Source of the DNA: a virus
Direction: 5' to 3' (one strand)
IMG/VR virus record: IMGVR_UViG_3300000313_000007
Location: 1-40,852 of that record
DNA: 40,852 bases
Both the position numbers and the translations under genes were made by a program. Below are positions 216-40,831 of the stretch, one piece after another (positions within the stretch are counted from its first letter, which is position 1; every line of letters begins with the position of its first letter). The notes beneath the pieces are model-generated. The model was not told the origin of the DNA, did no database searches, and worked only from the letters and a program-made list of their open reading frames with translations.

Positions 216-1931
216 CTATTTTGTAAATGCAAATTGACTAGATAATATATTATTAACTAATTCATTTTGAACAATAGATATTTTTTCAATAAGCGTCAAC
301 AATTCTGTAGACTTATCTGAAATACGAATGTCATATTCATCCTTATTAGTATTATCAATCTTTGTTCTATTAATAAAATCGGTTATTGTATCAAATTCCC
401 AATAATAATATGATATTGTATCTGTTTTTATTTTATCACTATGAACAATTTTATTTTTATAAAAAATTATTCTACCAATATTTTTATATAAAATATACAA
501 ATTATACCCAAATGACTTTCTAAATTTACTATTATTTATTAACCTTATTGATTCAAATTCTTTCAAATATTCTTTATATTTTGTAAAATTTTTTCTTATA
601 ATATAAAACTCTATCAATTCCAACAAAGACTCTGAACCGTATAATTTATAATAATCTTTATTAGGATCATCTTTACAAGAATCTTCAATTATCTTAATAT
701 ATTGTTTATAGTAATCGTAATATCTTACTTCATTATTCTCTATTTCAGCAAAATCATTTTCCTTCCAATATATATCAATCATTAATTTATAAAGTTCAAA
801 TATTTTTTTTAGTGTATAATTGTTTTGATAATTTTTATCAAGATAATTTTTCAATGCTAATTTATAATATGCTAATTTAATATTATTATTAACCTCTAAT
901 TTTCCCAAGTTCAAATATAATTCAGCTTTATCATTTTCACATTTTCGAATTAATTTATTTTTTAAACAGTAAGATTTTTTACTTTCTATACATGATATAC
1001 AATCGGTCAAATAACTCATAGATTGTTTTTTTTGATTGTTTTTCTTATAAAATTGATAATTCGAAAAACAATCATTTTCTTGCAATGTATGATTACTAAT
1101 AGGTTCCGAATAATTATTAGCTTTTGAAAAACCATTAATATCATAATAAATAGTTTCTGCTCTAATACTAAAAAAACAATCCAATTCTTTTAATATATTT
1201 TTCTTTGATTCGTAAGGTATTTTTAGTGTCTCGAAAATTATTCTTTTTTCCCCTACTTCATCTTTTTTCCCATTTACAGAAGGGAACGCAGCAAGACTAA
1301 ACAAAAAAACACTATCTTGCTTGATTATTCTATTATTTATCTTTGATGGATTCCAAAACCAAAAGCAAGGGTCGAACTTCGTTCTATTCTCGGCACGGTC
1401 ATAGTTAAAAGTTTTTAACACTGTAATTATATCATCGTCTTTTTTAATATCAGGCAATTCGTTTTGTGAAAAATATTCAATATTATTATTATTAATATCA
1501 TTTGTCAAGTCTAAAAAAATTACACGTCCATCTTTTTTTGATTCTACACCTTTGTTAGTTGATTGACAAGCCATCCACAAAGCAATTAAACAATTTGTTG
1601 TAAAATCAACCAAACAAGTTGCACCACCATTATGCTGAATCTCTGCCAGTAATTCCATATCTGTTAATGTACTTCCAGACTTTATTTCACCATATCCATA
1701 CTGCCTTGCGTTTCTAAGTAAATTAGCATGATAATTAATAAATTCATTTTGAAAATATTTTTTTTCATTTAAAAGCCTTCTGCCTGCGCCTGATATTATA
1801 TTCCAATCACAATTTGCTTGACCACGAAAAATATACCTACCATTCATATCTTCCAAATTTAAAATTTTTAATTTTTCTGCCAAAGCCTTTATAAATGAAC
1901 TCACACAATCAATTACAATAGTATCTTCCAT
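216..1931 (-). CDS. FRG-domain protein, candidate anti-phage defence gene
   Basis: 571 residues. The N-terminal part (about residues 30-250) carries the FRG signature: YIFRGQANCDW at 33-43, then IQHNGGATCLVDFTTN near 94-109, as in FRG (DUF) proteins. The C-terminal half is helical, very Lys/Asn/Tyr rich and may contain TPR-like repeats; no other catalytic motif is seen. A GGAGG ribosome site precedes the ATG, and TATAAT (minus strand) at 1967-1972 is a likely -10. FRG domains are known from abortive-infection and other phage-defence contexts; their activity is not settled. The gene stands alone beside an IS end, its base composition is far more AT-rich than the phage genes, and it points toward the IS, all suggesting cargo. 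Defence role is inference. Confidence 0.75.
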   Translation of the reverse strand: MEDTIVIDCVSSFIKALAEKLKILNLEDMNGRYIFRGQANCDWNIISGAGRRLLNEKKYFQNEFINYHANLLRNARQYGYGEIKSGSTLTDMELLAEIQHNGGATCLVDFTTNCLIALWMACQSTNKGVESKKDGRVIFLDLTNDINNNNIEYFSQNELPDIKKDDDIITVLKTFNYDRAENRTKFDPCFWFWNPSKINNRIIKQDSVFLFSLAAFPSVNGKKDEVGEKRIIFETLKIPYESKKNILKELDCFFSIRAETIYYDINGFSKANNYSEPISNHTLQENDCFSNYQFYKKNNQKKQSMSYLTDCISCIESKKSYCLKNKLIRKCENDKAELYLNLGKLEVNNNIKLAYYKLALKNYLDKNYQNNYTLKKIFELYKLMIDIYWKENDFAEIENNEVRYYDYYKQYIKIIEDSCKDDPNKDYYKLYGSESLLELIEFYIIRKNFTKYKEYLKEFESIRLINNSKFRKSFGYNLYILYKNIGRIIFYKNKIVHSDKIKTDTISYYYWEFDTITDFINRTKIDNTNKDEYDIRISDKSTELLTLIEKISIVQNELVNNILSSQFAFTK

Positions 1932-2550: not shown

Positions 2551-3345
2551 ATGAAGACACCTATTACGTATTATGGCGGCAAGCAGCAGCTTGCAAAGAA
2601 AATCATTTCTCTTATTCCAGCACATGACATATACTGCGAACCTTTTATCGGAGGCGGTGCTGTTTTCTTTCAGAAGCAGCCGTCAAAATCTGAAATTATC
2701 AACGATATAAACGGCGAACTGATAAACTTCTATGAAGTTATACAGAAAGACTTTTCGCTTCTGGCCCAGCAGGTATCAATCAGCCTGCATAGCAGGGAGT
2801 TATACAGGCAGGCCCGCGTAGTCCATGAAAATCCTGAAATGTTTGACCGTATAAAGAGAGCCTGGGCTATATGGGTACTTGCCAATTCCTCATTCGGTGC
2901 CAATTGGAAGGCCGGCTGGGGATATGACGCTGCAGGCCAGACAACAAAAACAATAACTAATAAGCGCAATTCCTTTACAGTGGAACTTGCAATACGGCTG
3001 CAGAATGTCCAGATTGAAAGCTATGATGCCCTCAAAATTATCAGTAGTAGAGACCGGCCAGAAACGTTCTTTTATTGTGATCCGCCCTACCCGGATACAG
3101 ACCAGGGCCATTATGACGGGTATTCAGCAGAGGACTTCCGGCACCTGCTTGAAACGCTCGAACATATACAGGGTAAATTCCTGCTTAGCTCTTTTAGACA
3201 TCCGGTGCTTACAGCTTTCACAGTTAAAAACAACTGGTATCAGATAGAACTGAAAATGAATAAGCCTATGTCGGTAAAGTCCGGTATTTCAAAACAGAAA
3301 ATAGAAGTACTGACCGCAAATTATCCTATAAAACTGGATAACTGA
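2551..3345 (+). CDS. dam: Dam-type DNA adenine-N6 methyltransferase, copy A
   Basis: 264 residues, usual length for phage Dam (D12 class) enzymes that transfer a methyl group from SAM to adenine. YYGGKQQLAKKI at 7-18 is the SAM-binding motif, FIGGGAVFF follows near 32, and FYCDPPY near 173-179 is the catalytic DPPY motif. SD AAGGA lies ahead of the ATG. It is preceded by a structured leader and followed by a hairpin, and it converges with the integrase. The recognition site cannot be read from sequence. Copy B at 40037 differs at about ten residues. Methylation could protect phage DNA or time its replication and packaging. Confidence 0.92.
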   Translation: MKTPITYYGGKQQLAKKIISLIPAHDIYCEPFIGGGAVFFQKQPSKSEIINDINGELINFYEVIQKDFSLLAQQVSISLHSRELYRQARVVHENPEMFDRIKRAWAIWVLANSSFGANWKAGWGYDAAGQTTKTITNKRNSFTVELAIRLQNVQIESYDALKIISSRDRPETFFYCDPPYPDTDQGHYDGYSAEDFRHLLETLEHIQGKFLLSSFRHPVLTAFTVKNNWYQIELKMNKPMSVKSGISKQKIEVLTANYPIKLDN

Positions 3346-3384: not shown

Positions 3385-4545
3385 TTACAGTTGCAGTAAC
3401 TTGATAAGTTTTTCCTGCGCCTCGTACACTTCTGGGAACATGTCAGGCGACCAGTTTGTATAACGCTCCTGCATACTCCCGCTACCGCTTGAATGCCCTA
3501 TAACAGCCGCAACCTTTACAGGAGGCACATTCTCAGATAAAAGAAATGTATTGAAAAAATGTCGCCATGAATGAACACAAAGCAGCCGTTTTTTCTTCTC
3601 TTCTGCCATACCATTCAATGCAAGCACTTCGTTTAAATGCCGTAGCACTGTCATTTCCGTTGTAAAACCGAAAGCAAAATGTTTATCATTCAAATTACAA
3701 AGAGGTTTCAAAAACTCGTACAATGTTCTGGGAATAGGTATTTTCCGCTGTTCCTTCGTTTTTGTTGGACAAATTCGTCCCTGATACATCTGTTCAGTTA
3801 CGTCTATGAAATCTTCATGGAGATTCTTTTTGTTTATTGCAAGTATTTCACTGATTCGCATACCGGTAAGAGCTGCTGTCAAATTTGCAATTCTCGAAAC
3901 ATCGGAACGCCATTTAGCACGGAATATATTTTCGGCTTCTTCCAACGTGAACGCATCCCTTTTCTTGTCATCTCCTTTCATTGGGCGTATTCCGCGGAAT
4001 GGGTCAAACATCATTATATTATCCGCAAGCGCATAATCAGTAATTATACGAAGTACTGCAACTACATTATTTACCGTTTTACGTGACATCGACTTGTCTT
4101 GAATTAAATGAGTTCTGAAATGTTTTATGTCGCTGGGCTTTATATCGTGTAACTTGTAATCTGCAAAATAGGGCATTATATGTTTTTCAAGATGTTGACG
4201 GTACTGTTTTATTGTAGACAGGGAAAGTGCTGGATGTTCGGTTGTACCTTCTTCCATTTTGTCGGAAAACCAAGGTGAACCGTCATCAAACCATTTTGCA
4301 GCATAAACTCCGAACTGCTGACTTGAACCGCCGTAGAGTTGTCCATGCTTCAGCAAGTCGTCACAATATGCCCTTGCTGCCGTTTTTGCTTTGCATCCGG
4401 TTGTTTTTCCGGTTGTAAGAGTCCCGTCAGAACTATATGTCTTAAAATACCATACGGTTCCTTGTTTAAGTTGTCGTTTGTAAAGAAAATAAGCTCCGTG
4501 CATAATTACCACTTTTCTGGCGGTTTGTACACATTTTGTATACAT
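3385..4545 (-). CDS. int: Tyrosine-recombinase phage integrase
   Basis: 386 residues. An N-terminal arm-binding part and a SAM-like core-binding part (about 100-190, STIKQYRQHLEKHIMPYF) lead into the catalytic domain: the first Arg in LTGMRISEIL, HSWRHFF (His-x-x-Arg), the second His in IGHSS, and the nucleophile Tyr in ERYTNW. All active-site residues are present, so the protein should be active. The ATG at 4545 has no good SD; an in-frame ATG at 4503 (MHGAYF) is an alternative start. It converges with dam copy A and marks the left end of the phage. It catalyses integration and excision together with an Xis; the HTH protein at 11803 is the candidate. Confidence 0.93.
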   Translation of the reverse strand: MYTKCVQTARKVVIMHGAYFLYKRQLKQGTVWYFKTYSSDGTLTTGKTTGCKAKTAARAYCDDLLKHGQLYGGSSQQFGVYAAKWFDDGSPWFSDKMEEGTTEHPALSLSTIKQYRQHLEKHIMPYFADYKLHDIKPSDIKHFRTHLIQDKSMSRKTVNNVVAVLRIITDYALADNIMMFDPFRGIRPMKGDDKKRDAFTLEEAENIFRAKWRSDVSRIANLTAALTGMRISEILAINKKNLHEDFIDVTEQMYQGRICPTKTKEQRKIPIPRTLYEFLKPLCNLNDKHFAFGFTTEMTVLRHLNEVLALNGMAEEKKKRLLCVHSWRHFFNTFLLSENVPPVKVAAVIGHSSGSGSMQERYTNWSPDMFPEVYEAQEKLIKLLQL

Positions 4546-5459: not shown

Positions 5460-5733
5460 ATGAACGAACGCGGACAAAACTTTAATGATTTTATGAAGGA
5501 ACATGGATTATTTGAAGAAGCTCACGAATTGGCTGCTAAAAAAAATCATAGCTGTGCAACTTAAACAGGAAATGAATAATCAACATTTCACAAAAACGGG
5601 CATTGTAAAAAAAATGAACACTACCCGATCTGCTGTAGACAATGCGCTCGATTCCGAGTTCAACACTTCGATAGAAACACTGGATCGTTTCGCTTGTGCG
5701 CTGGGAAAACAGTTATCCTTGACGCTGAGATGA
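5460..5733 (+). pseudogene. XRE-family regulator split by a frameshift in an A8 tract
   Basis: Frame 1 from ATG 5460 gives MNERGQNFNDFMKEHGLFEE..HELAAKK and then runs out of frame in a run of eight As (about 5541-5548). The +1 frame continues with IIAVQLKQEMNNQHFTKTGI, MNTTRSAVDNALDSEFNTS and FACALGKQLSLTLR to TGA at 5733. Joined, they form one typical small XRE/HTH antitoxin-type protein of about 90 residues. One A too many explains the break. It may be a dead gene, a phase-variable switch, or rescued by polymerase slippage on A8. A 22-codon ORF at 5417 just before it may be the remnant of a partner gene. It follows brnA by 43 nt. Confidence 0.75.
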
Positions 5734-10440: not shown

Positions 10441-10794
10441 CTACCCTGCTGTATTTGCCTTATCTTTGTGTGCGTTCTCTGCGGCTGTTGTTATCATCGG
10501 GCGTATGATTGCCTGCGTCTTAGCGTCAAGTTCGTGCCAATCGTCAAGTAAATGCCTGTCGTCGTCGTTTAGGCCGTCTGGATCTTCACCTGTTAATAGC
10601 CATTCAACGGAAACATTAAAATATTTCGCTATTTTAAATGCAATATCTGCGCTAGGTATACTGCCTCTTTTTGACCATGAAGTAAACGGTTGTAACGAGA
10701 TGCCTATCGCATCGGCAACAGCCTTTCTTTTCAAGTTTTTTTCTTTAAGTAGCTTATCTATTCTTTCAACAATTTCTTTCCCAACAATACTCAT
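10441..10794 (-). CDS. XRE-family CI-like repressor, module 1
   Basis: 117 residues. HTH_3 domain at about 5-68: RKAVADAIGISLQPFTSWSK is the helix-turn-helix, and the VSVEWLLTGEDP end of the domain is typical of phage repressors. The C-terminal 50 residues are short and acidic, with no LexA-type Ser/Lys protease. No SD: the ATG lies exactly 6 nt after GATAAT, so the mRNA is predicted to be leaderless like lambda cI from PRM. It faces the operon beginning at 11009 across three operators. A HExxH peptidase is the first gene of that operon, as in ImmR/ImmA pairs, which suggests inactivation by cleavage. Confidence 0.87.
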   Translation of the reverse strand: MSIVGKEIVERIDKLLKEKNLKRKAVADAIGISLQPFTSWSKRGSIPSADIAFKIAKYFNVSVEWLLTGEDPDGLNDDDRHLLDDWHELDAKTQAIIRPMITTAAENAHKDKANTAG

Positions 10795-11008: not shown

Positions 11009-11806
11009 ATGACGAACGAAGACATTAAAAACAAGCTTCTGCAGCTATATGAATGCAAAACAGATTTTACAGTCATACAAACAGGCAAAAAAAGCAGCAA
11101 AGTAAACGGTTTTTACCGCGTCGTCACGCATGAAATATTTCTTCATAATAAAAACTTCAATTCTGATAACCAGCTCATGTATACAGCTGTACATGAACTT
11201 ACACACCATATTCTTGATACTGAAAAAGGTGTAAAAACGGCACGATGTCATTCAGGTGCTTTCTACTCGACATTTTATAACCTTATCGACAAAGCTGTTG
11301 ACCTTCATTTCTATTCCCGCAACAGAAACACAGAAACGGCAGAACTAATAAAAGAGGCCAATGACATTCAGAAGCAGATTACCGACCTGCAAAAAAAACT
11401 CGGTAAAGTGCTCATAAAGATACAAGCAGTATGTGATAAAAATAGCGACCGTTTCGAAGATGTAATTGAGCATGACTGCCAGATATCAAGACAGCAGGCA
11501 CATAAATTTATGCAGATGTCTGCAATAAACCTTTCTGTATCAGAAGAAATCTTAAACGCACTTTCAATTAAATCATCGACAGACGCAATGACAAAACAGG
11601 CTGCTATACAGGCGACAGCCGAAGGAAAAACCGTACAGCAGATAAAGGCAATTGCACAAGCGGCAAAACCGACAGACAACGGCCTTGAGTCACCGGAAAA
11701 GCTGCTTAAAGAAAAACAGCGGCTTGAAAAAACAATCGATCAATTAAACGACAGGCTTATCCAGGTTGAAGAAACTCTTAGAAGTATGGGGGAAGAATCA
11801 GAATGA
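11009..11806 (+). CDS. ImmA-like HExxH metallopeptidase with DUF3102-like C-terminal half
   Basis: 265 residues; SD GGGG eight bases before the ATG. N-terminal zinc-peptidase domain with VHELTHHILD at 61-70 (HExxH = 62-66). Residues 115-140 and 230-262 are coiled coils. The middle reads VLIKIQAVCDKNSDRFEDVI then DCQISRQQAHKFMQMS, similar to DUF3102 phage proteins. ImmA/IrrE-type peptidases cleave XRE repressors in ICEBs1-like elements. First gene after operator array 1, opposite an XRE repressor, so derepression by cleavage is the natural guess. Fusion of the two halves is unusual. The next gene overlaps its stop as ATGA. Confidence 0.78.
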   Translation: MTNEDIKNKLLQLYECKTDFTVIQTGKKSSKVNGFYRVVTHEIFLHNKNFNSDNQLMYTAVHELTHHILDTEKGVKTARCHSGAFYSTFYNLIDKAVDLHFYSRNRNTETAELIKEANDIQKQITDLQKKLGKVLIKIQAVCDKNSDRFEDVIEHDCQISRQQAHKFMQMSAINLSVSEEILNALSIKSSTDAMTKQAAIQATAEGKTVQQIKAIAQAAKPTDNGLESPEKLLKEKQRLEKTIDQLNDRLIQVEETLRSMGEESE

Positions 11807-11973
11807 CTGAATTCATGACGGCAAAACAAGTATCTGAATGGTTGCATATATCTTTAAAAAAAGTACGGCAGCTTACGTATTATAAAAAGATTCCGGCGCA
11901 TCATCTCGGAGCACGTGTTATATACATACCTGATGAGGTTGAAAAAACAATTAGAACGAATGAAAAACTATAG
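11803..11973 (+). CDS. Excisionase-type helix-turn-helix protein
   Basis: 56 residues, start ATG overlapping the previous stop (ATGA). MTAKQVSEWLHISLKKVRQL is a MerR/excisionase-type HTH (HTH_17), followed by the wing YYKKIPAHHLGARVIYIPDE. Proteins of this size and fold act as Xis or as small regulators. No other Xis candidate is seen in the window, so it is the likely excision directionality factor for the integrase at 3385. Translationally coupled to the metallopeptidase. Confidence 0.75.
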   Translation: MTEFMTAKQVSEWLHISLKKVRQLTYYKKIPAHHLGARVIYIPDEVEKTIRTNEKL

Positions 11974-11977
11974 ACAG

Positions 11978-12523
11978 GATAACGGCGTATGCCACAAGCG
12001 CCGCAATATAGTTAACCTTGCCCGTATGGGCTGGCAATAACGCAGGTAACCGGCATACAGGTTACACAATCACCCTGCCGGTAGACGCTGAAAAGCGGGT
12101 CGCAAGACCGGGGATAAGCAGCCGCAGTGATGCGGAAGGCAGCAAATCAAGACCGGTGAATCAGTAACCTTTTATTAATTTTGGATAAAAGTTCTTGCAG
12201 AGAATATTCTGCGTGGTTCCGTGGGTGAGAAGCAAAGCCACCGCCGGTGCGATAAATACTGATTGAGTGTACATACAGAATCAGGGCGGTATAGCCGTAA
12301 GGCAACCTATATAAGTGCTCGCAGGTTCGCGACCTGCCGGAACCAATCTATCATAGCGCGTAACGAGCGAGATTTTCACGGATTGAGCTATACAACCGTG
12401 ACGCCGGCTCCCGGCGTGATTCAGACTAGCCATTGCCGACAGGGGAGTCAATCGAGGCCGCAGCTGTGCGTAAAACAGCGACCGTGTGCCACTCTGTTTC
12501 GGCGAGGGAACACGGCCTTTTTT
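11978..12523 (+). ncRNA. Large structured non-coding RNA, ~546 nt
   Basis: No convincing ORF fills this interval, but pairings are dense. H1 CGGCG/CGCCG (11983-12003) and H2 GTAACC/GGTTAC (12046-12065) have complementary loops, TATGCC (11988-11993) and GGCATA (12052-12057), with GCCC-GTAT-GGGC between them. GNRA tetraloops: CGCT-GAAA-AGCG (12086), GGTC-GCAA-GACC (12098), CCGCA-GTGA-TGCGG (12122), GCC-GTAA-GGC (12294). Long-range helix TGGTTCCG/CGGAACCA (12214-12221 with 12338-12345). Hairpins GCAGGT/ACCTGC (12321-12337), TCACGG/CCGTGA (12376-12401), ACGCCGG/CCGGCGT (12401-12417) and GCTGT/ACAGC (12463-12479). It ends in a terminator with TTTTTT. AACTAT at 11966-11971 predicts a start near 11978. 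Size and style resemble the phage-borne ROOL and GOLLD RNA classes, but I cannot confirm membership. Confidence 0.75.
12455..12523 (+). terminator. Intrinsic terminator of the large RNA
   Basis: CCGTGT (12482-12487)/ACACGG (12510-12515) with inner GCC/GGC, directly before TTTTTT at 12518-12523. An alternative outer stem AGGCCG (12455-12460)/CGGCCT (12513-12518) competes for the same 3' arm, so two forms are possible. Confidence 0.7.
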
Positions 12524-12559
12524 AAGCAACTTAAAACTGCTTAGCAGGAGGCTACAGGA

Positions 12560-12766
12560 ATGCAAGACATAGGACTTTCACAAATTAAAAAAATAAAGCA
12601 GCGAATCGCAAAAAAAATAGTCGACGCCCTGAAAGATGAAGAAATGCTTATTAACCGTATCAGCTTCAACGACACACGTCGTCTAGTAATTGAATATTCA
12701 ATCAGCGACCAACAAGAAATGAATAAATCTCTTGAAGCCCGTTATGATCACGTAGATGTCCTATAA
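12560..12766 (+). CDS. Small early protein, unknown
   Basis: 68 residues, basic N-terminus (QIKKIKQRIAKKIVDALKDE), then a beta-like RLVIEYSISDQQ. SD AGGAGG twelve bases before the ATG. Hairpin CTGC-TTA-GCAG (12537-12547) abuts the SD and may affect access. Follows the large RNA terminator by 36 nt. No family recognised. Confidence 0.65.
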   Translation: MQDIGLSQIKKIKQRIAKKIVDALKDEEMLINRISFNDTRRLVIEYSISDQQEMNKSLEARYDHVDVL

Positions 12767-14336: not shown

Positions 14337-14991
14337 ATGGCAGTAATCGTAATGGTATACGGAAAGAGCGGCAGCGGAAAGTCAACATCACTCCGTAATT
14401 TCAAAAAGGGTGAAATCAGCGTAATCAATGTTAGTAAAAAGCCCTTCCCGTTCCATGCTGAATTTACGTCACTTGCAACAGACAGTTATGAACAGATACG
14501 GCAAGCAGGTAAGTACAACAGCATCACCAAGTATCTGTATTGACGATGCTACGTACTTACTCGTTGACGAGTTCATGCGGACCGCAAAAATGACGGGCTA
14601 TCAGAAATTCACCGACATGGCTCTGAACTTTTTCAATCTTGTGCGCTTTTGTAACGATGAGCTCGACAGCAGCAGAATTGTTTATTTTCTCGGTCACTCA
14701 GACACAGACAGCAACGGTGATGAACATTTTAAAACTATCGGGCAGCTGCTTGACGAGAAAGTAACGCTCGAAGGGCTTTTTACGGTTGTACTAAAAACCG
14801 TTGTACAGGATGGACATTATTTCTTCGCGACACAGACGAACGGACAGGACACCGTAAAAAGCCCTATAGATATGTTTCAGAAGCAGCTTATACCGAATGA
14901 CTTGAAAGCGGTCGACGACACTATACGCGGATTCTGGAACATACCAAGAACACACACAGGCACTAATATGCCGAAATTCGGCACTAAATAA
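14337..14991 (+). pseudogene. Sak4-like phage recombination ATPase, frameshifted
   Basis: Frame 1 (14337-14543) begins MAVIVMVYGKSGSGKSTSLR, a Walker A motif, and runs to SYEQIRQAGKYN before a TGA. The +1 frame picks up at about 14500-14530 with SICIDDATYLLVDEF (Walker B), then FLGHSDTDSNGD, TIGQLLDEKVTLEGLFTVVL and TQTNGQDTVKSPIDMFQ, ending at 14991. Together they match the single-frame AAA ATPases of the Sak4/NTP-binding phage family that work with single-strand annealing and DUF669 proteins; DUF669 is the next gene. No slippery heptamer is obvious. Options are an inactivating 1-base insertion, a sequencing error, or recoding. Confidence 0.75.
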
Positions 14992-15008
14992 ACAGGAGAT
15001 AAAACACT

Positions 15009-15710
15009 ATGGGATTTTGGGCAAACTACAAACCGGAAGATTACGACACAGTATTTGACTGCAGTGACGGAGACCATACACTTACAATCGTGAAGGTCGA
15101 ACCGAAGCAGAGCAAGAACAATAACGACATGATCGAAGTATCGTTCAAGGTCGACAACATCGGCGTGTATTATGTCGAGCGGTACACTGACAACGAATAC
15201 TTCAACAAAATAATAACAAGGTTCTTCGACGCGTTCGGTATTCCGCGCGGAAACTTCACGTTTAAGAGCTGGTTCGGTAAACAGGCTCAGGGGCACTTCA
15301 TCCACAAGGAAGAAACATATACCGGTAAAGACGGACAGCAGAAGACAATTAACAAAGCACGTCTGCAGTACCTTGCTGTACCGGACAAAGAATCTAACGG
15401 CTACGAGTCGTATCAAAGTGCGGCAGAGGACGCACCGTCTGAACCAACGGCACAGGAAACAGCCGGCGCTTCTGCAGCGTTCGACAAAAAGACTGCTAAA
15501 CCGTCACCTATGACAAAAGAAACGGCCGATGAACTTAATAAAATGTTCGAAAGCGGACAGTTCACGCAGGAAGAAGCAATCGCCTATTACGCTCTGTACC
15601 ATAACGGGGAAGTTGCCGCGGATGCACTGCTCTGGAAAGTTCGTAAGGAATACACAACACGGCTTAACAAAAATAATGACAAGGCGCAGAACGAGATGCC
15701 TATTTTCTAG
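15009..15710 (+). CDS. DUF669-like phage ssDNA-binding/recombination partner
   Basis: 233 residues; SD AGGAG. The opening MGFWANYKPEDYDTVFDCSD and the folded part to about residue 125 match DUF669 phage proteins encoded beside Sak4-like ATPases. A low-complexity Ala/Ser/Pro linker follows, then a helical part, and the chain ends in NEMPIF, recalling the acidic PF tip of SSB proteins that docks replication partners. Likely binds single-stranded DNA during phage recombination and replication. Function by family and context. Confidence 0.72.
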   Translation: MGFWANYKPEDYDTVFDCSDGDHTLTIVKVEPKQSKNNNDMIEVSFKVDNIGVYYVERYTDNEYFNKIITRFFDAFGIPRGNFTFKSWFGKQAQGHFIHKEETYTGKDGQQKTINKARLQYLAVPDKESNGYESYQSAAEDAPSEPTAQETAGASAAFDKKTAKPSPMTKETADELNKMFESGQFTQEEAIAYYALYHNGEVAADALLWKVRKEYTTRLNKNNDKAQNEMPIF

Positions 15711-15721
15711 GAGCGGTAAAA

Positions 15722-16180
15722 ATGAAATGCGAGGTTACATTAAAATACGTCAACATTACGGACATAATGCGCGGAATACTCGGCTTCAAAATAGCAGACC
15801 AGAGCGACGCCGTAAAAATAAGCGTATCCAATGTAATCCGCAATTGTATAAAACGCTACGGCGGTATGGTACGTATTACAGTCCAGCCGCCGTATAAGAT
15901 GCGCAGTACCGGGCCTTACAGCCAGAACCATCATTTAAACGGACACATTATAGATATCTGCAACGCAACAGGGAACAGCTACGAAGATGTAAAGACGGCA
16001 ATAAAAATGTTTGCTGTCGAAAACATGGGGTATCCGTATGAAATGATCCTGGGGAAAATAATTCCTAAGCACGAAAGGGACTGCAATACCGAAGAATGCT
16101 CAAAACTGATAGAAGCTGCACACATTATAGCTGCAGAGAACGGAATAGCACTGACAGAGGCGTGGAATGCTAACAGGTGA
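15722..16180 (+). CDS. NinB-like recombination protein
   Basis: 152 residues; SD GGAGCG. The segment TGPYSQNHHLNGHIIDICNA followed by GNSYEDVKTAIKMFAV and GYPYEMILGKIIPKHERD matches the conserved core of NinB-type proteins, which bind single-stranded DNA and help recombination in lambdoid phages. A C-terminal helix LIEAAHIIAAENGIALTEAW is also typical. Overlaps the next gene by 14 nt. Confidence 0.75.
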   Translation: MKCEVTLKYVNITDIMRGILGFKIADQSDAVKISVSNVIRNCIKRYGGMVRITVQPPYKMRSTGPYSQNHHLNGHIIDICNATGNSYEDVKTAIKMFAVENMGYPYEMILGKIIPKHERDCNTEECSKLIEAAHIIAAENGIALTEAWNANR

Positions 16181-16457
16181 ACAGAGAATTAAGAAACTGA
16201 ACGAACAGCGATGGTTATGCGCATACTGCGGCCGGCCACTTGACGTTATGACAGCGCAGTCGGCGCACAAAATCGCAGACACGAAGAGTAACCGCAGGAA
16301 GTACGGTAACGACATTGTGGACGCATATGAGAACATTGCAATGACGCACGCAGGAAAATGCAACGATGGAATGAATATCGGCTTCAACCCCGGCAAATGT
16401 ACGCAGCTTATTAACCGGATACGAGAACATGACACACACCGCGGAGTATCAAAATGA
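16167..16457 (+). CDS. Small HNH-like endonuclease (early)
   Basis: 96 residues. CAYCGRPL near 19-26, then SAHKIADTKSN and YENIAMTHAGKCNDG resemble the Cys-pair, His and Asn elements of HNH nucleases; a further NPGKC could complete the metal site. Short and without a full canonical HNH string, so activity is uncertain. Sits among recombination genes, where NinG-like nucleases are common. Confidence 0.6.
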   Translation: MLTGEQRIKKLNEQRWLCAYCGRPLDVMTAQSAHKIADTKSNRRKYGNDIVDAYENIAMTHAGKCNDGMNIGFNPGKCTQLINRIREHDTHRGVSK

Positions 16458-17236
16458 ATGAACAGGCTGAATCTTTTATTATGTACGCATCTTTTTATAC
16501 AGCGATGGAAAGTCTTCATGGCGAACAGTTTGAAAAGGTAATGCGTACAATCAATGATTATGCATTCTACGGAACAATTCCGGTTAATATGGATGTCACA
16601 ACAAAAATGATTTTCACGCTTGTAAAACCGCAGATTGACGCAAACAGCAAACGGAGAAACAACGGCAGCAAAGGCGGAGCACCGGCAGGAAACAGCAATG
16701 CAGGTAAAAAACAACCGGAGCTTGATTTATCCAACACGGAAGCACAATCACAGTTTGAACCAGAAACAACCGACGGTTATACAGAAAACAACCAACGGTT
16801 AAATGAAAAACAACCTAATGTAAATGTTAATGTGAATGGAAATGTGAATGACAATGCGAATACGGATAGCGCGCAGGCGCGCACGGATGCAGAGCATCCT
16901 ACCCCGCCCGGCCCTTCAGCTGAGGCCTCTTCTTCGAAACGGTTTATAAAGCCAACACTTCAGCAGGTAAAAGACTACTGCCTCTCCCGAAATAACTGTG
17001 TTGATCCGCAGGCATGGTTAGACCATTACGAAAGCAACGGCTGGAAGATCGGCGCTCATTCGCCTATGAAGGACTGGCAGGCGGCTGTCAGAACATGGGA
17101 GCACAACAACTACTCACTGCCTAAGAGTTTACCAAAGTTTCAGGGCATGGACGGAGACAGGCAGCAGAACGGTAAGGCGGGCGAAATAATGCAGAACATC
17201 ATGAACAGAAGCGCAGGAGGATTACAGCAATTATGA
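16454..17236 (+). CDS. Phage replisome organiser, DUF6291-like N-terminus
   Basis: 260 residues. N-terminal domain FYTAMESLHGEQFEKVMRTI..YAFYG then TLVKPQIDANSKRRNNGSKG is the DUF6291 signature. A long polar linker with a VNVNVNGNVN run lies at about 115-165. The C-terminal part (TLQQVKDYCLSRNNCVDPQA, WLDHYESNGWKI, DWQAAVRTWEHNNY) matches phage replication-initiation proteins. It probably recruits the helicase loader encoded next (overlap 4 nt). The Asn/Val repeat in the linker is a simple-sequence hot spot. Confidence 0.78.
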   Translation: MNEQAESFIMYASFYTAMESLHGEQFEKVMRTINDYAFYGTIPVNMDVTTKMIFTLVKPQIDANSKRRNNGSKGGAPAGNSNAGKKQPELDLSNTEAQSQFEPETTDGYTENNQRLNEKQPNVNVNVNGNVNDNANTDSAQARTDAEHPTPPGPSAEASSSKRFIKPTLQQVKDYCLSRNNCVDPQAWLDHYESNGWKIGAHSPMKDWQAAVRTWEHNNYSLPKSLPKFQGMDGDRQQNGKAGEIMQNIMNRSAGGLQQL

Positions 17237-40036: not shown

Positions 40037-40831
40037 ATGAAGACACCTATTAAGTATTACGGTGGCAAGCAGCAGCTTGCAAAGAAAATTATCTCTCTTA
40101 TTCCACAGCATGAAATATACTGTGAACCTTTTATCGGCGGAGGTGCCGTTTTCTTCCAGAAACAGCCGTCAAAATCTGAAATTATCAACGATATAAATGG
40201 AGAACTGATAAATTTCTACGAAGTTATCCAGAAAGACTTTTCGCTTCTGTCTCAGCAGGTATCAATCAGCCTGCACTGCAGGGAGTTATACAGGCAGGCT
40301 CGCGTAGTCCATGAAAATCCTGAAATGTTTGACCGTATAAAGAGAGCCTGGGCTGTATGGGTGATTGCCAATTCCTCATTCGGTGCCAATTGGAAGGCCG
40401 GCTGGGGATATGACGCTGCAGGCCAGACAACAAAAACAATAACTAATAAGCGCAATTCCTTTACCGAAGAACTTGCAATACGGCTGCAGAATGTTCAGAT
40501 TGAAAGCTATGACGCCCTCAAAATTATCAGTAGCAGGGACAGACCGGAAACGTTCTTTTATTGTGATCCGCCCTACCCTGATACAGATCAGGGCCATTAC
40601 GACGGCTATTCAGCAGAAGACTTCCGGTGCCTGCTTGAAACGCTCGAACATATACAGGGTAAATTCCTGCTTAGCTCGTTTAGACATCCGGTGCTTACGG
40701 CTTTCACAGTTAAGAACAACTGGTATCAGATAGAACTGAAAATGAACAAGCCTATGTCGGTAAAGTCCGGTATTTCAAAACAGAAAATAGAAGTACTGAC
40801 CGCAAATTATCCTATAAAACTGGATAACTGA
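40037..40831 (+). CDS. dam: Dam-type DNA adenine-N6 methyltransferase, copy B
   Basis: 264 residues, differing from copy A at about ten positions (for example Thr6 to Lys, Val145 to Glu). All motifs are intact: YYGGKQQLAKKI, FIGGGAVFF and FYCDPPYPDT. Same upstream leader and same trailing hairpin start. Being downstream of the tail genes, this copy is more likely the resident phage's own methylase. Two nearly equal copies offer a target for homologous recombination that would remove everything between them. Confidence 0.92.
   Translation: MKTPIKYYGGKQQLAKKIISLIPQHEIYCEPFIGGGAVFFQKQPSKSEIINDINGELINFYEVIQKDFSLLSQQVSISLHCRELYRQARVVHENPEMFDRIKRAWAVWVIANSSFGANWKAGWGYDAAGQTTKTITNKRNSFTEELAIRLQNVQIESYDALKIISSRDRPETFFYCDPPYPDTDQGHYDGYSAEDFRCLLETLEHIQGKFLLSSFRHPVLTAFTVKNNWYQIELKMNKPMSVKSGISKQKIEVLTANYPIKLDN

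What the first reader, a model, noticed from the sequence alone, without database searches (positions are those of the whole stretch)
11978..12523. Large structured non-coding RNA in the early region
About 546 nt without a credible ORF, with four GNRA-capped hairpins, an 8-bp helix spanning 116 nt, many GC-rich hairpins, a 6-bp loop-loop complement and a terminal hairpin with six Ts. It resembles the giant ornate RNAs of phages (ROOL, GOLLD) in size, setting and style. If it matches none of them it would be a new class.
Basis: partly seen in the sequence, partly recalled or inferred. Interest (0 to 1): 0.88.

Follow-up and report, generated by a model that had tools for sequence, protein, structure and literature searches.

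The report
Unlisted modular RNA in Treponema phages
A stretch of a bacterial virus genome that makes no protein carries a small RNA hairpin that recurs, with matching compensating mutations, at gene boundaries in many other phages, so it belongs to a family of structured RNAs that the Rfam reference library does not list and whose job is still unknown.

Summary
In detail: 11978-12523 (+) has no credible ORF, about 50% GC against 35-40% in its flanks, three GNRA hairpins with stems of at least 4 bp (0.08 expected) and a terminal hairpin plus six Ts. The 8-bp helix is at chance level and global folding is only mildly better than shuffles. Nothing in Rfam 15 matches, so it is not ROOL or GOLLD. 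I found no homologue of the full 546 nt. Its 5' hairpin SL1 (12016-12034) does recur: NCUUG-NCC-GUAU-GGN-CUGN lies in about 30 noncoding places, mostly phages and Treponema-type genomes, with Watson-Crick pairing kept through all four pair types, also at a pair outside the search pattern (26 of 32; 10 by permutation). SL1 sits just after stop codons or tRNA ends and is often followed by a second hairpin, an AAUUU(U)GGA element (also in the window) and T-runs. I read the region as an unusually long member of an undescribed modular phage RNA family. A cis-acting operon-boundary role is the likeliest mechanism, but it is inferred. A ROOL/GOLLD-like particle is possible and unsupported.

The parts
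11978..12523 (+). Structured non-coding RNA region between an HTH gene and a small ORFan; probable unit from just after the HTH stop to the terminator
   Evidence: GC rise, no coding evidence, GNRA hairpins far above chance, SL1 and AAUUUUGGA shared with other phages
12011..12041 (+). SL1: conserved hairpin (core 12016-12034 CCUUGCCCGUAUGGGCUGG; UU/U internal loop; GUAU apical loop; outer stem GUUA/UAAC)
   Evidence: core found exactly in 7 viral contigs, 5 of them noncoding; covariation on 32 noncoding instances; fold
12046..12065 (+). Hairpin GUAACC-GGCAUACA-GGUUAC in the position that SL2 takes in relatives; its loop differs from the SL2 consensus GA..AGA
   Evidence: fold; comparison with relatives; competes with pairing 12049-12055/12076-12082
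12086..12109 (+). Two abutting GNRA hairpins CGCU-GAAA-AGCG and GGUC-GCAA-GACC
12122..12135 (+). GNRA hairpin CCGCA-GUGA-UGCGG
12148..12185 (+). CAAGAC (12148-12153) followed by AAUUUUGGA (12177-12185); same order in L064, L089, L095
   Evidence: 0 of 4000 shuffles of the window RNA hold this combination; AAUUU(U)GGA lies within 250 nt of SL1 in 8 of 33 loci against 0.014 per 250 nt background
12159..12264 (+). Domain closed by AAUCAGUA/UACUGAUU (12159-12166/12257-12264), with GCGAUAAA (12249-12256) before the closing strand; tentative counterpart of 'module B' of relatives
   Evidence: z -3.06; module B seen by eye in L066, L083, L114, L129, L103, L085
12294..12303 (+). GNRA hairpin GCC-GUAA-GGC
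12482..12523 (+). Terminal hairpin plus six Ts, terminator-like
   Evidence: inverted repeat I11; sequence
11803..11973 (+). Upstream gene, small HTH/excisionase-like protein (context, not part of the RNA)
   Evidence: Pfam HTH_17 E 2.3e-6, PHROG 668 E 2.6e-6
12560..12766 (+). Downstream small ORF of 68 aa without relatives (context)

Best explanation
The region encodes a structured RNA in the early operon of a siphovirus prophage of a Treponema-type host. It is a long member of an undescribed modular RNA family whose hallmark is hairpin SL1. In the family, SL1 folds just after the stop codon of the upstream gene or just after a tRNA, further structured modules follow (SL2, AAUUU(U)GGA, GCGA(U)AAA domains), and several members end in a hairpin plus T-run shortly before the ribosome-binding site of the next gene. 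Most likely it works in cis at operon junctions: SL1 marks and protects the boundary of the RNA unit, and the 3' hairpin sets how much transcription stops there (releasing a separate ncRNA) and how much reads into the next genes. Shown here: the SL1 structure (covariation), its placement at gene and tRNA ends on the coding strand, the shared second element, and the absence from Rfam. Inferred: transcription, termination and read-through, processing, and any protein or RNA polymerase partner.
For: SL1 structure: 97.3% of cells paired against 82.7% in shuffles, 37 cells with both sides changed against 9.2, all slid controls far lower. In a scan leaving two stem pairs free, every hit outside a long reading frame is Watson-Crick at both (14 of 14 distinct), against 7 of 33 hits inside long frames (Fisher 3e-7). 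A pair outside the search pattern is Watson-Crick in 26 of 32, permutation mean 10.3. Placement: in 14 of 31 loci SL1 starts 0-18 nt after a same-strand stop codon or overlaps it; in L023 and L070 it follows a tRNA called by ARAGORN by about 2 nt. Second element: AAUUU(U)GGA in 8 of 33 within 250 nt against 0.014 per 250 nt. T-runs close to the next RBS in L066, L083, L114 and the window. Neighbouring genes are phage recombination, replication and packaging genes: terminase small subunit, Sak4, exonuclease, SSB; the window's early operon also has Sak4 and SSB downstream.
Against: No transcript data. The downstream genes differ between members, so no gene-specific regulation is visible. Some members lack SL2 and the later modules, for example the SL1 before the capsid gene of a capybara microvirus, which sits after, not before, a terminator-like hairpin. 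The window's hairpin at the SL2 position does not fit the SL2 consensus. Most of the window's 546 nt has no counterpart elsewhere.
Confidence: 0.45

Rival explanations
1. A trans-acting ornate phage RNA of the ROOL/GOLLD style: an abundant stand-alone RNA, possibly multimeric, that acts as a particle or scaffold.
For: Prophage setting, 546 nt, several GNRA hairpins well above chance, own terminator-like end, no Rfam match; ROOL and GOLLD are prophage/phage RNAs of unknown function often near tRNA islands (PMC12286853), and some SL1 loci are next to tRNAs.
Against: No Rfam similarity to either; relatives found share only small modules and are mostly short; no full-length homologue, so no evidence that the large fold is conserved; no tRNA in the window.
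Confidence: 0.2
2. SL1-SL2 is an RNA antiterminator like HK022 put: nascent hairpins bind RNA polymerase so that it passes the terminators inside phage operons.
For: Two-hairpin layout of about 50-55 nt at operon junctions, upstream of T-runs; in the window it lies about 1 kb into the early operon; HK022 putL and putR are two-stem RNAs of about 70 nt downstream of early promoters (PMC9378689).
Against: No sequence likeness to the HK022 put region; the window lacks a consensus SL2; the capybara microvirus SL1 lies after a terminator-like hairpin.
Confidence: 0.15
3. SL1 is a stabilising or protein-binding hairpin of mRNA ends (5' leader protection, RNase site or repressor site), and the rest of the window RNA is unrelated structured sequence.
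For: SL1 alone, without other modules, precedes Treponema genes (L075, L082, L063), metK leaders hold an SL1-like hairpin (L116, L118, L125, L132), and a microvirus capsid leader has one.
Against: AAUUU(U)GGA co-occurs with SL1 far above background, and the window holds it too.
Confidence: 0.15
4. SL1 acts as DNA (single-strand hairpin or protein-bound palindrome), for example a small mobile or replication hairpin.
For: No G-T/G-U pair at all among the variable pairs, 0 of 26 at the free outer pair; presence in an ssDNA microvirus.
Against: It keeps one orientation relative to the upstream genes; SL2 and module B stems contain G-U pairs; pairs that may be any base as long as they match do not fit a dimeric operator.
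Confidence: 0.05

Closest known systems
ROOL RNA
   Same: Phage/prophage large non-coding RNA; some relatives near tRNAs
   Different: No covariance-model similarity; most relatives small and modular; no evidence of oligomers
GOLLD RNA
   Same: Prophage RNA, variable parts, tRNA neighbourhood in some members
   Different: No covariance-model similarity; many members exceed 800 nt per PMC12286853
HK022 put antiterminator RNA
   Same: Two adjacent hairpins at early phage operon positions upstream of terminators
   Different: No sequence likeness in the HK022 region read here; antitermination untested
lambda nut sites (boxA/boxB), from general knowledge
   Same: SL2 has a purine-rich loop (GA..AGA) on a 5-bp stem, as boxB does
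   Different: No boxA sought or seen, extra SL1, no N-like protein identified

Membership tests
ROOL / GOLLD / OLE and all other Rfam 15 families | Match to the family's covariance model | tested here: not met
   No hit at gathering threshold over the whole window; only chance hits at E<=5 on 11850-12650; relatives also without hits except a tRNA
ROOL / GOLLD | Assembly into RNA-only multimeric cages | not testable with these tools
   Needs in vitro RNA and cryo-EM or native mass measurements
ROOL / GOLLD | Prophage location, often near tRNA islands | tested here: inconclusive
   Prophage yes; no tRNA in the window; tRNAs next to SL1 in L023, L070, L092
SL1 family (defined here) | Hairpin NCUUG-NCC-GUAU-GGN-CUGN with covarying stem | tested here: met
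   Window 12016-12034 exact; model R1 built without the window scores it 35.6 bits, but the members were found with the window's hairpin, so that score is not independent; covariation
SL1 family (defined here) | SL2 hairpin with GA..AGA loop after SL1 (optional in the family) | tested here: not met
   Window has GUAACC-GGCAUACA-GGUUAC at that place; several other SL1 loci also lack SL2
SL1 family (defined here) | AAUUU(U)GGA element downstream (optional in the family) | tested here: met
   12177-12185; 8 of 33 loci against 0.014 per 250 nt background; preceded by CAAGAC as in L064, L089, L095
HK022 put | Sequence/structure of put stems I and II | tested here: not met
   HK022 region around nun and cI read and folded; no SL1-like hairpin
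HK022 put | Antitermination through the RNAP beta' zinc-binding domain | not testable with these tools
   Needs transcription assays
Protein-coding gene or decayed gene | Open frame with homology | tested here: not met
   No Pfam match for overlapping ORFs at E<=10; frames interrupted

The most novel reading that the evidence does not exclude
A new class of phage RNA devices: a modular RNA built around SL1, ranging from about 50 nt to over 500 nt, that binds host RNA polymerase, ribosome or RNA-processing enzymes at operon junctions in spirochaete and gut phages, of which the window's 546-nt form is the largest seen here.
Probability: 0.25. Interest if true: 0.85.

Novelty: new variant of a known kind. 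Interest (0 to 1): 0.6.

Why it matters
Structured phage RNAs with conserved parts but no known job are useful leads: ROOL and GOLLD show that they can be very unusual objects, and put shows that they can act directly on RNA polymerase. A hairpin kept by compensating changes in about 30 places, at the ends of genes and tRNAs, gives a short, testable handle (19 nt) on an RNA family that Rfam does not list, in spirochaete and gut phages whose RNA biology is little studied. It is also a search key with which a deeper alignment of the large form can be assembled.

Tried and rejected
(1) BLASTN of the 546 nt against 274 family genomes, 393 phylum genomes, annotated phages and plasmids: only short chance-level matches, except the 25-mer that led to SL1. 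(2) Locating the RNA by neighbouring genes: the 265-aa upstream protein has phage relatives (59% identity and less), but none of the loci read carries an equivalent RNA beside it; the downstream ORF is an orphan. (3) Coding origin of SL1 (peptide ALARMGW): true for L067, L068 and similar hits, rejected for the rest because they lie outside long frames and covary. (4) HK022 put homology: none. (5) Two-mismatch hits in the family as such: the control pattern read backwards gave a comparable number, so only hits with compensated changes were used. (6) A combined model of 'module B': registers of its stems shift between subtypes, so no covariance model was built; a strict pattern scan found only L066. 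One input row of alignment A2 had a letter added by hand; that alignment was discarded. Alignment A5 used loops shortened to N and supports no claim. (7) Group I/II intron, RNase P, tmRNA, tRNA: no Rfam or ARAGORN support. (9) Literature searches for a matching phage motif or Treponema prophage ncRNA: nothing found in the held library.

Full report
What is in the sequence. The window lies in contig C28 of its genome. It is a temperate siphovirus prophage: integrase 3385-4545 (-), repressor-like HTH 10441-10794 (-), terminase, portal and major head genes from 23258 on. The finding lies in the rightward early operon between an excisionase-like HTH gene ending at 11973 and a 68-aa ORFan starting at 12560. 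No coding signal was found. GC rises to about 0.50. Three GNRA hairpins of 4-5 bp stand against 0.08 expected, and the region ends with a hairpin plus six Ts. The long 8-bp helix is at chance level and global folding is only mildly better than shuffles on both strands, so folding energy alone would not have carried the claim; the sub-domains 12082-12136 and 12159-12264 do better.

Known families. cmscan against all 4227 Rfam families gave nothing at gathering threshold over the window and only chance matches at E up to 5 for the region. Full-length homologues were not found in annotated phages, plasmids, 274 genomes of the family or 393 of the phylum.

The hairpin SL1. The phylum search returned a 25-nt match whose core, CCTTGCCCGTATGGGCTGG, occurs exactly in seven viral contigs, five of them noncoding, and in other Treponema loci. 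Leaving one stem pair free, all 21 viral stretches were Watson-Crick at that pair: C-G, T-A or A-T. Leaving two pairs free, 50 stretches were found; all 14 distinct hits outside long open frames are Watson-Crick at both pairs, while hits inside long frames are so in 7 of 33 (Fisher 3e-7). The in-frame hits thus serve as an internal chance control. On 32 noncoding instances, 97.3% of cells pair, 37 cells have both sides changed (shuffle mean 9.2), and slid versions drop to 18-50% paired. The outer pair, not part of any search pattern, is A-U, U-A, C-G or G-C in 26 of 32 against 10.3 by permutation. No G-U pair occurs at all, which is odd for RNA and remains unexplained. The UU/U internal loop, the GUAU loop and the inner pairs do not vary, but most of these positions were fixed by the search patterns, so their constancy is partly ascertainment.

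Where SL1 sits. In 14 of 31 loci it starts 0-18 nt after a same-strand stop codon or overlaps it. In L023 and L070 it follows by about 2 nt a tRNA called by ARAGORN; in L069 and L106 it follows tRNA-like 3' arms seen by eye but not called by ARAGORN. Neighbouring phage genes include terminase small subunit (L083), Sak4-like annealing protein (L084), exonuclease and SSB (L089), and RecE-like nuclease and polymerase exonuclease subunit (L085). In a capybara microvirus it stands in the leader of the major capsid gene, after a terminator-like hairpin.

What follows SL1. Often there is a linker and SL2, a 5-bp hairpin with loop GA..AGA; model R1 built from six such loci finds others, including two copies in L091. 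The window was not used to build R1 and scores 35.6 bits, but this comes from SL1, by which the set was collected; SL2 is not matched in the window. AAUUU(U)GGA occurs within 250 nt of SL1 in 8 of 33 loci (window included) against 0.014 per 250 nt in the same loci; the order CAAGAY ... AAUUU(U)GGA, shared by the window, L064, L089 and L095, occurs in none of 4000 shuffles of the window RNA (the motif was chosen after seeing it, so these figures are somewhat optimistic). A further domain with nested stems and CGAAA before the closing strand is visible in L066, L083, L114, L129, L103 and L085; the window may have a counterpart at 12159-12264 (GCGAUAAA), which is tentative. Several members have T-runs just before the next RBS, as the window has.

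Interpretation. A structured RNA family not in Rfam is well supported through SL1 (my estimate: about 0.9 that SL1 is a functional paired element; about 0.8 that the window region belongs to the same modular family). The mechanism is inferred. Placement at gene and tRNA ends, co-directional orientation, and terminator-like ends inside operons favour a cis role at operon junctions (boundary, stabilisation, termination or antitermination) over a gene-specific riboswitch, since flanking genes vary. A trans-acting ornate RNA of the ROOL/GOLLD kind cannot be excluded: the window's form is larger than the other SL1 units seen here (about 50-330 nt by eye) and unusually rich in GNRA hairpins. ROOL and GOLLD facts are from PMC12286853 and put facts from PMC9378689.

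Limits. The members were collected with patterns derived from the window's SL1, so sequence constancy is overstated where the pattern was fixed; the covariation tests rest on positions that the patterns left free or did not cover. No transcript data exist here. Covariation of the 546-nt whole remains untested.

Noticed in passing
window 2551-3345 and 40037-40831 (+): Two copies of a D12-class DNA adenine methyltransferase gene, 97% identical in protein, same orientation, near the two ends of the prophage and next to the integrase on the left; may reflect duplication around the integration site.
   Followed up: partly
L116, L118, L125, L132 (about 1450-1550 in SL1 orientation): metK leaders of Treponema-type genomes hold CCAGU..ACUGG, GCUAAA near the RBS and an SL1-like hairpin GCUUGCCCGUAUGGGC; reminiscent of a SAM-II-type riboswitch with an inserted hairpin, but no such Rfam hit in L118 even at E 5.
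   Followed up: partly
window 12016-12034 and relatives: The covarying SL1 pairs are never G-U, unlike usual RNA stems; a DNA-level or strict geometry constraint may act.
   Followed up: partly
L106 around 670-717: A mini tRNA-like element (7-bp acceptor-like stem plus T-arm, no anticodon arm), not called by ARAGORN, directly before SL1.
   Followed up: no
L182 (MK496703.1, near 5604-5620): SL1 variant UCUUGUCCGUAUGGACUGA in the capsid-gene leader of a capybara gut microvirus.
   Followed up: yes
L075, L082 (G095 C1 about 14930-16600): SL1 with a G-C closing pair between tandem repeat-protein genes (BspA-like by eye), 4 nt after the stop codon.
   Followed up: no
window 216-1931 (-): FRG-domain protein beside the prophage; role not examined.
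   Followed up: no
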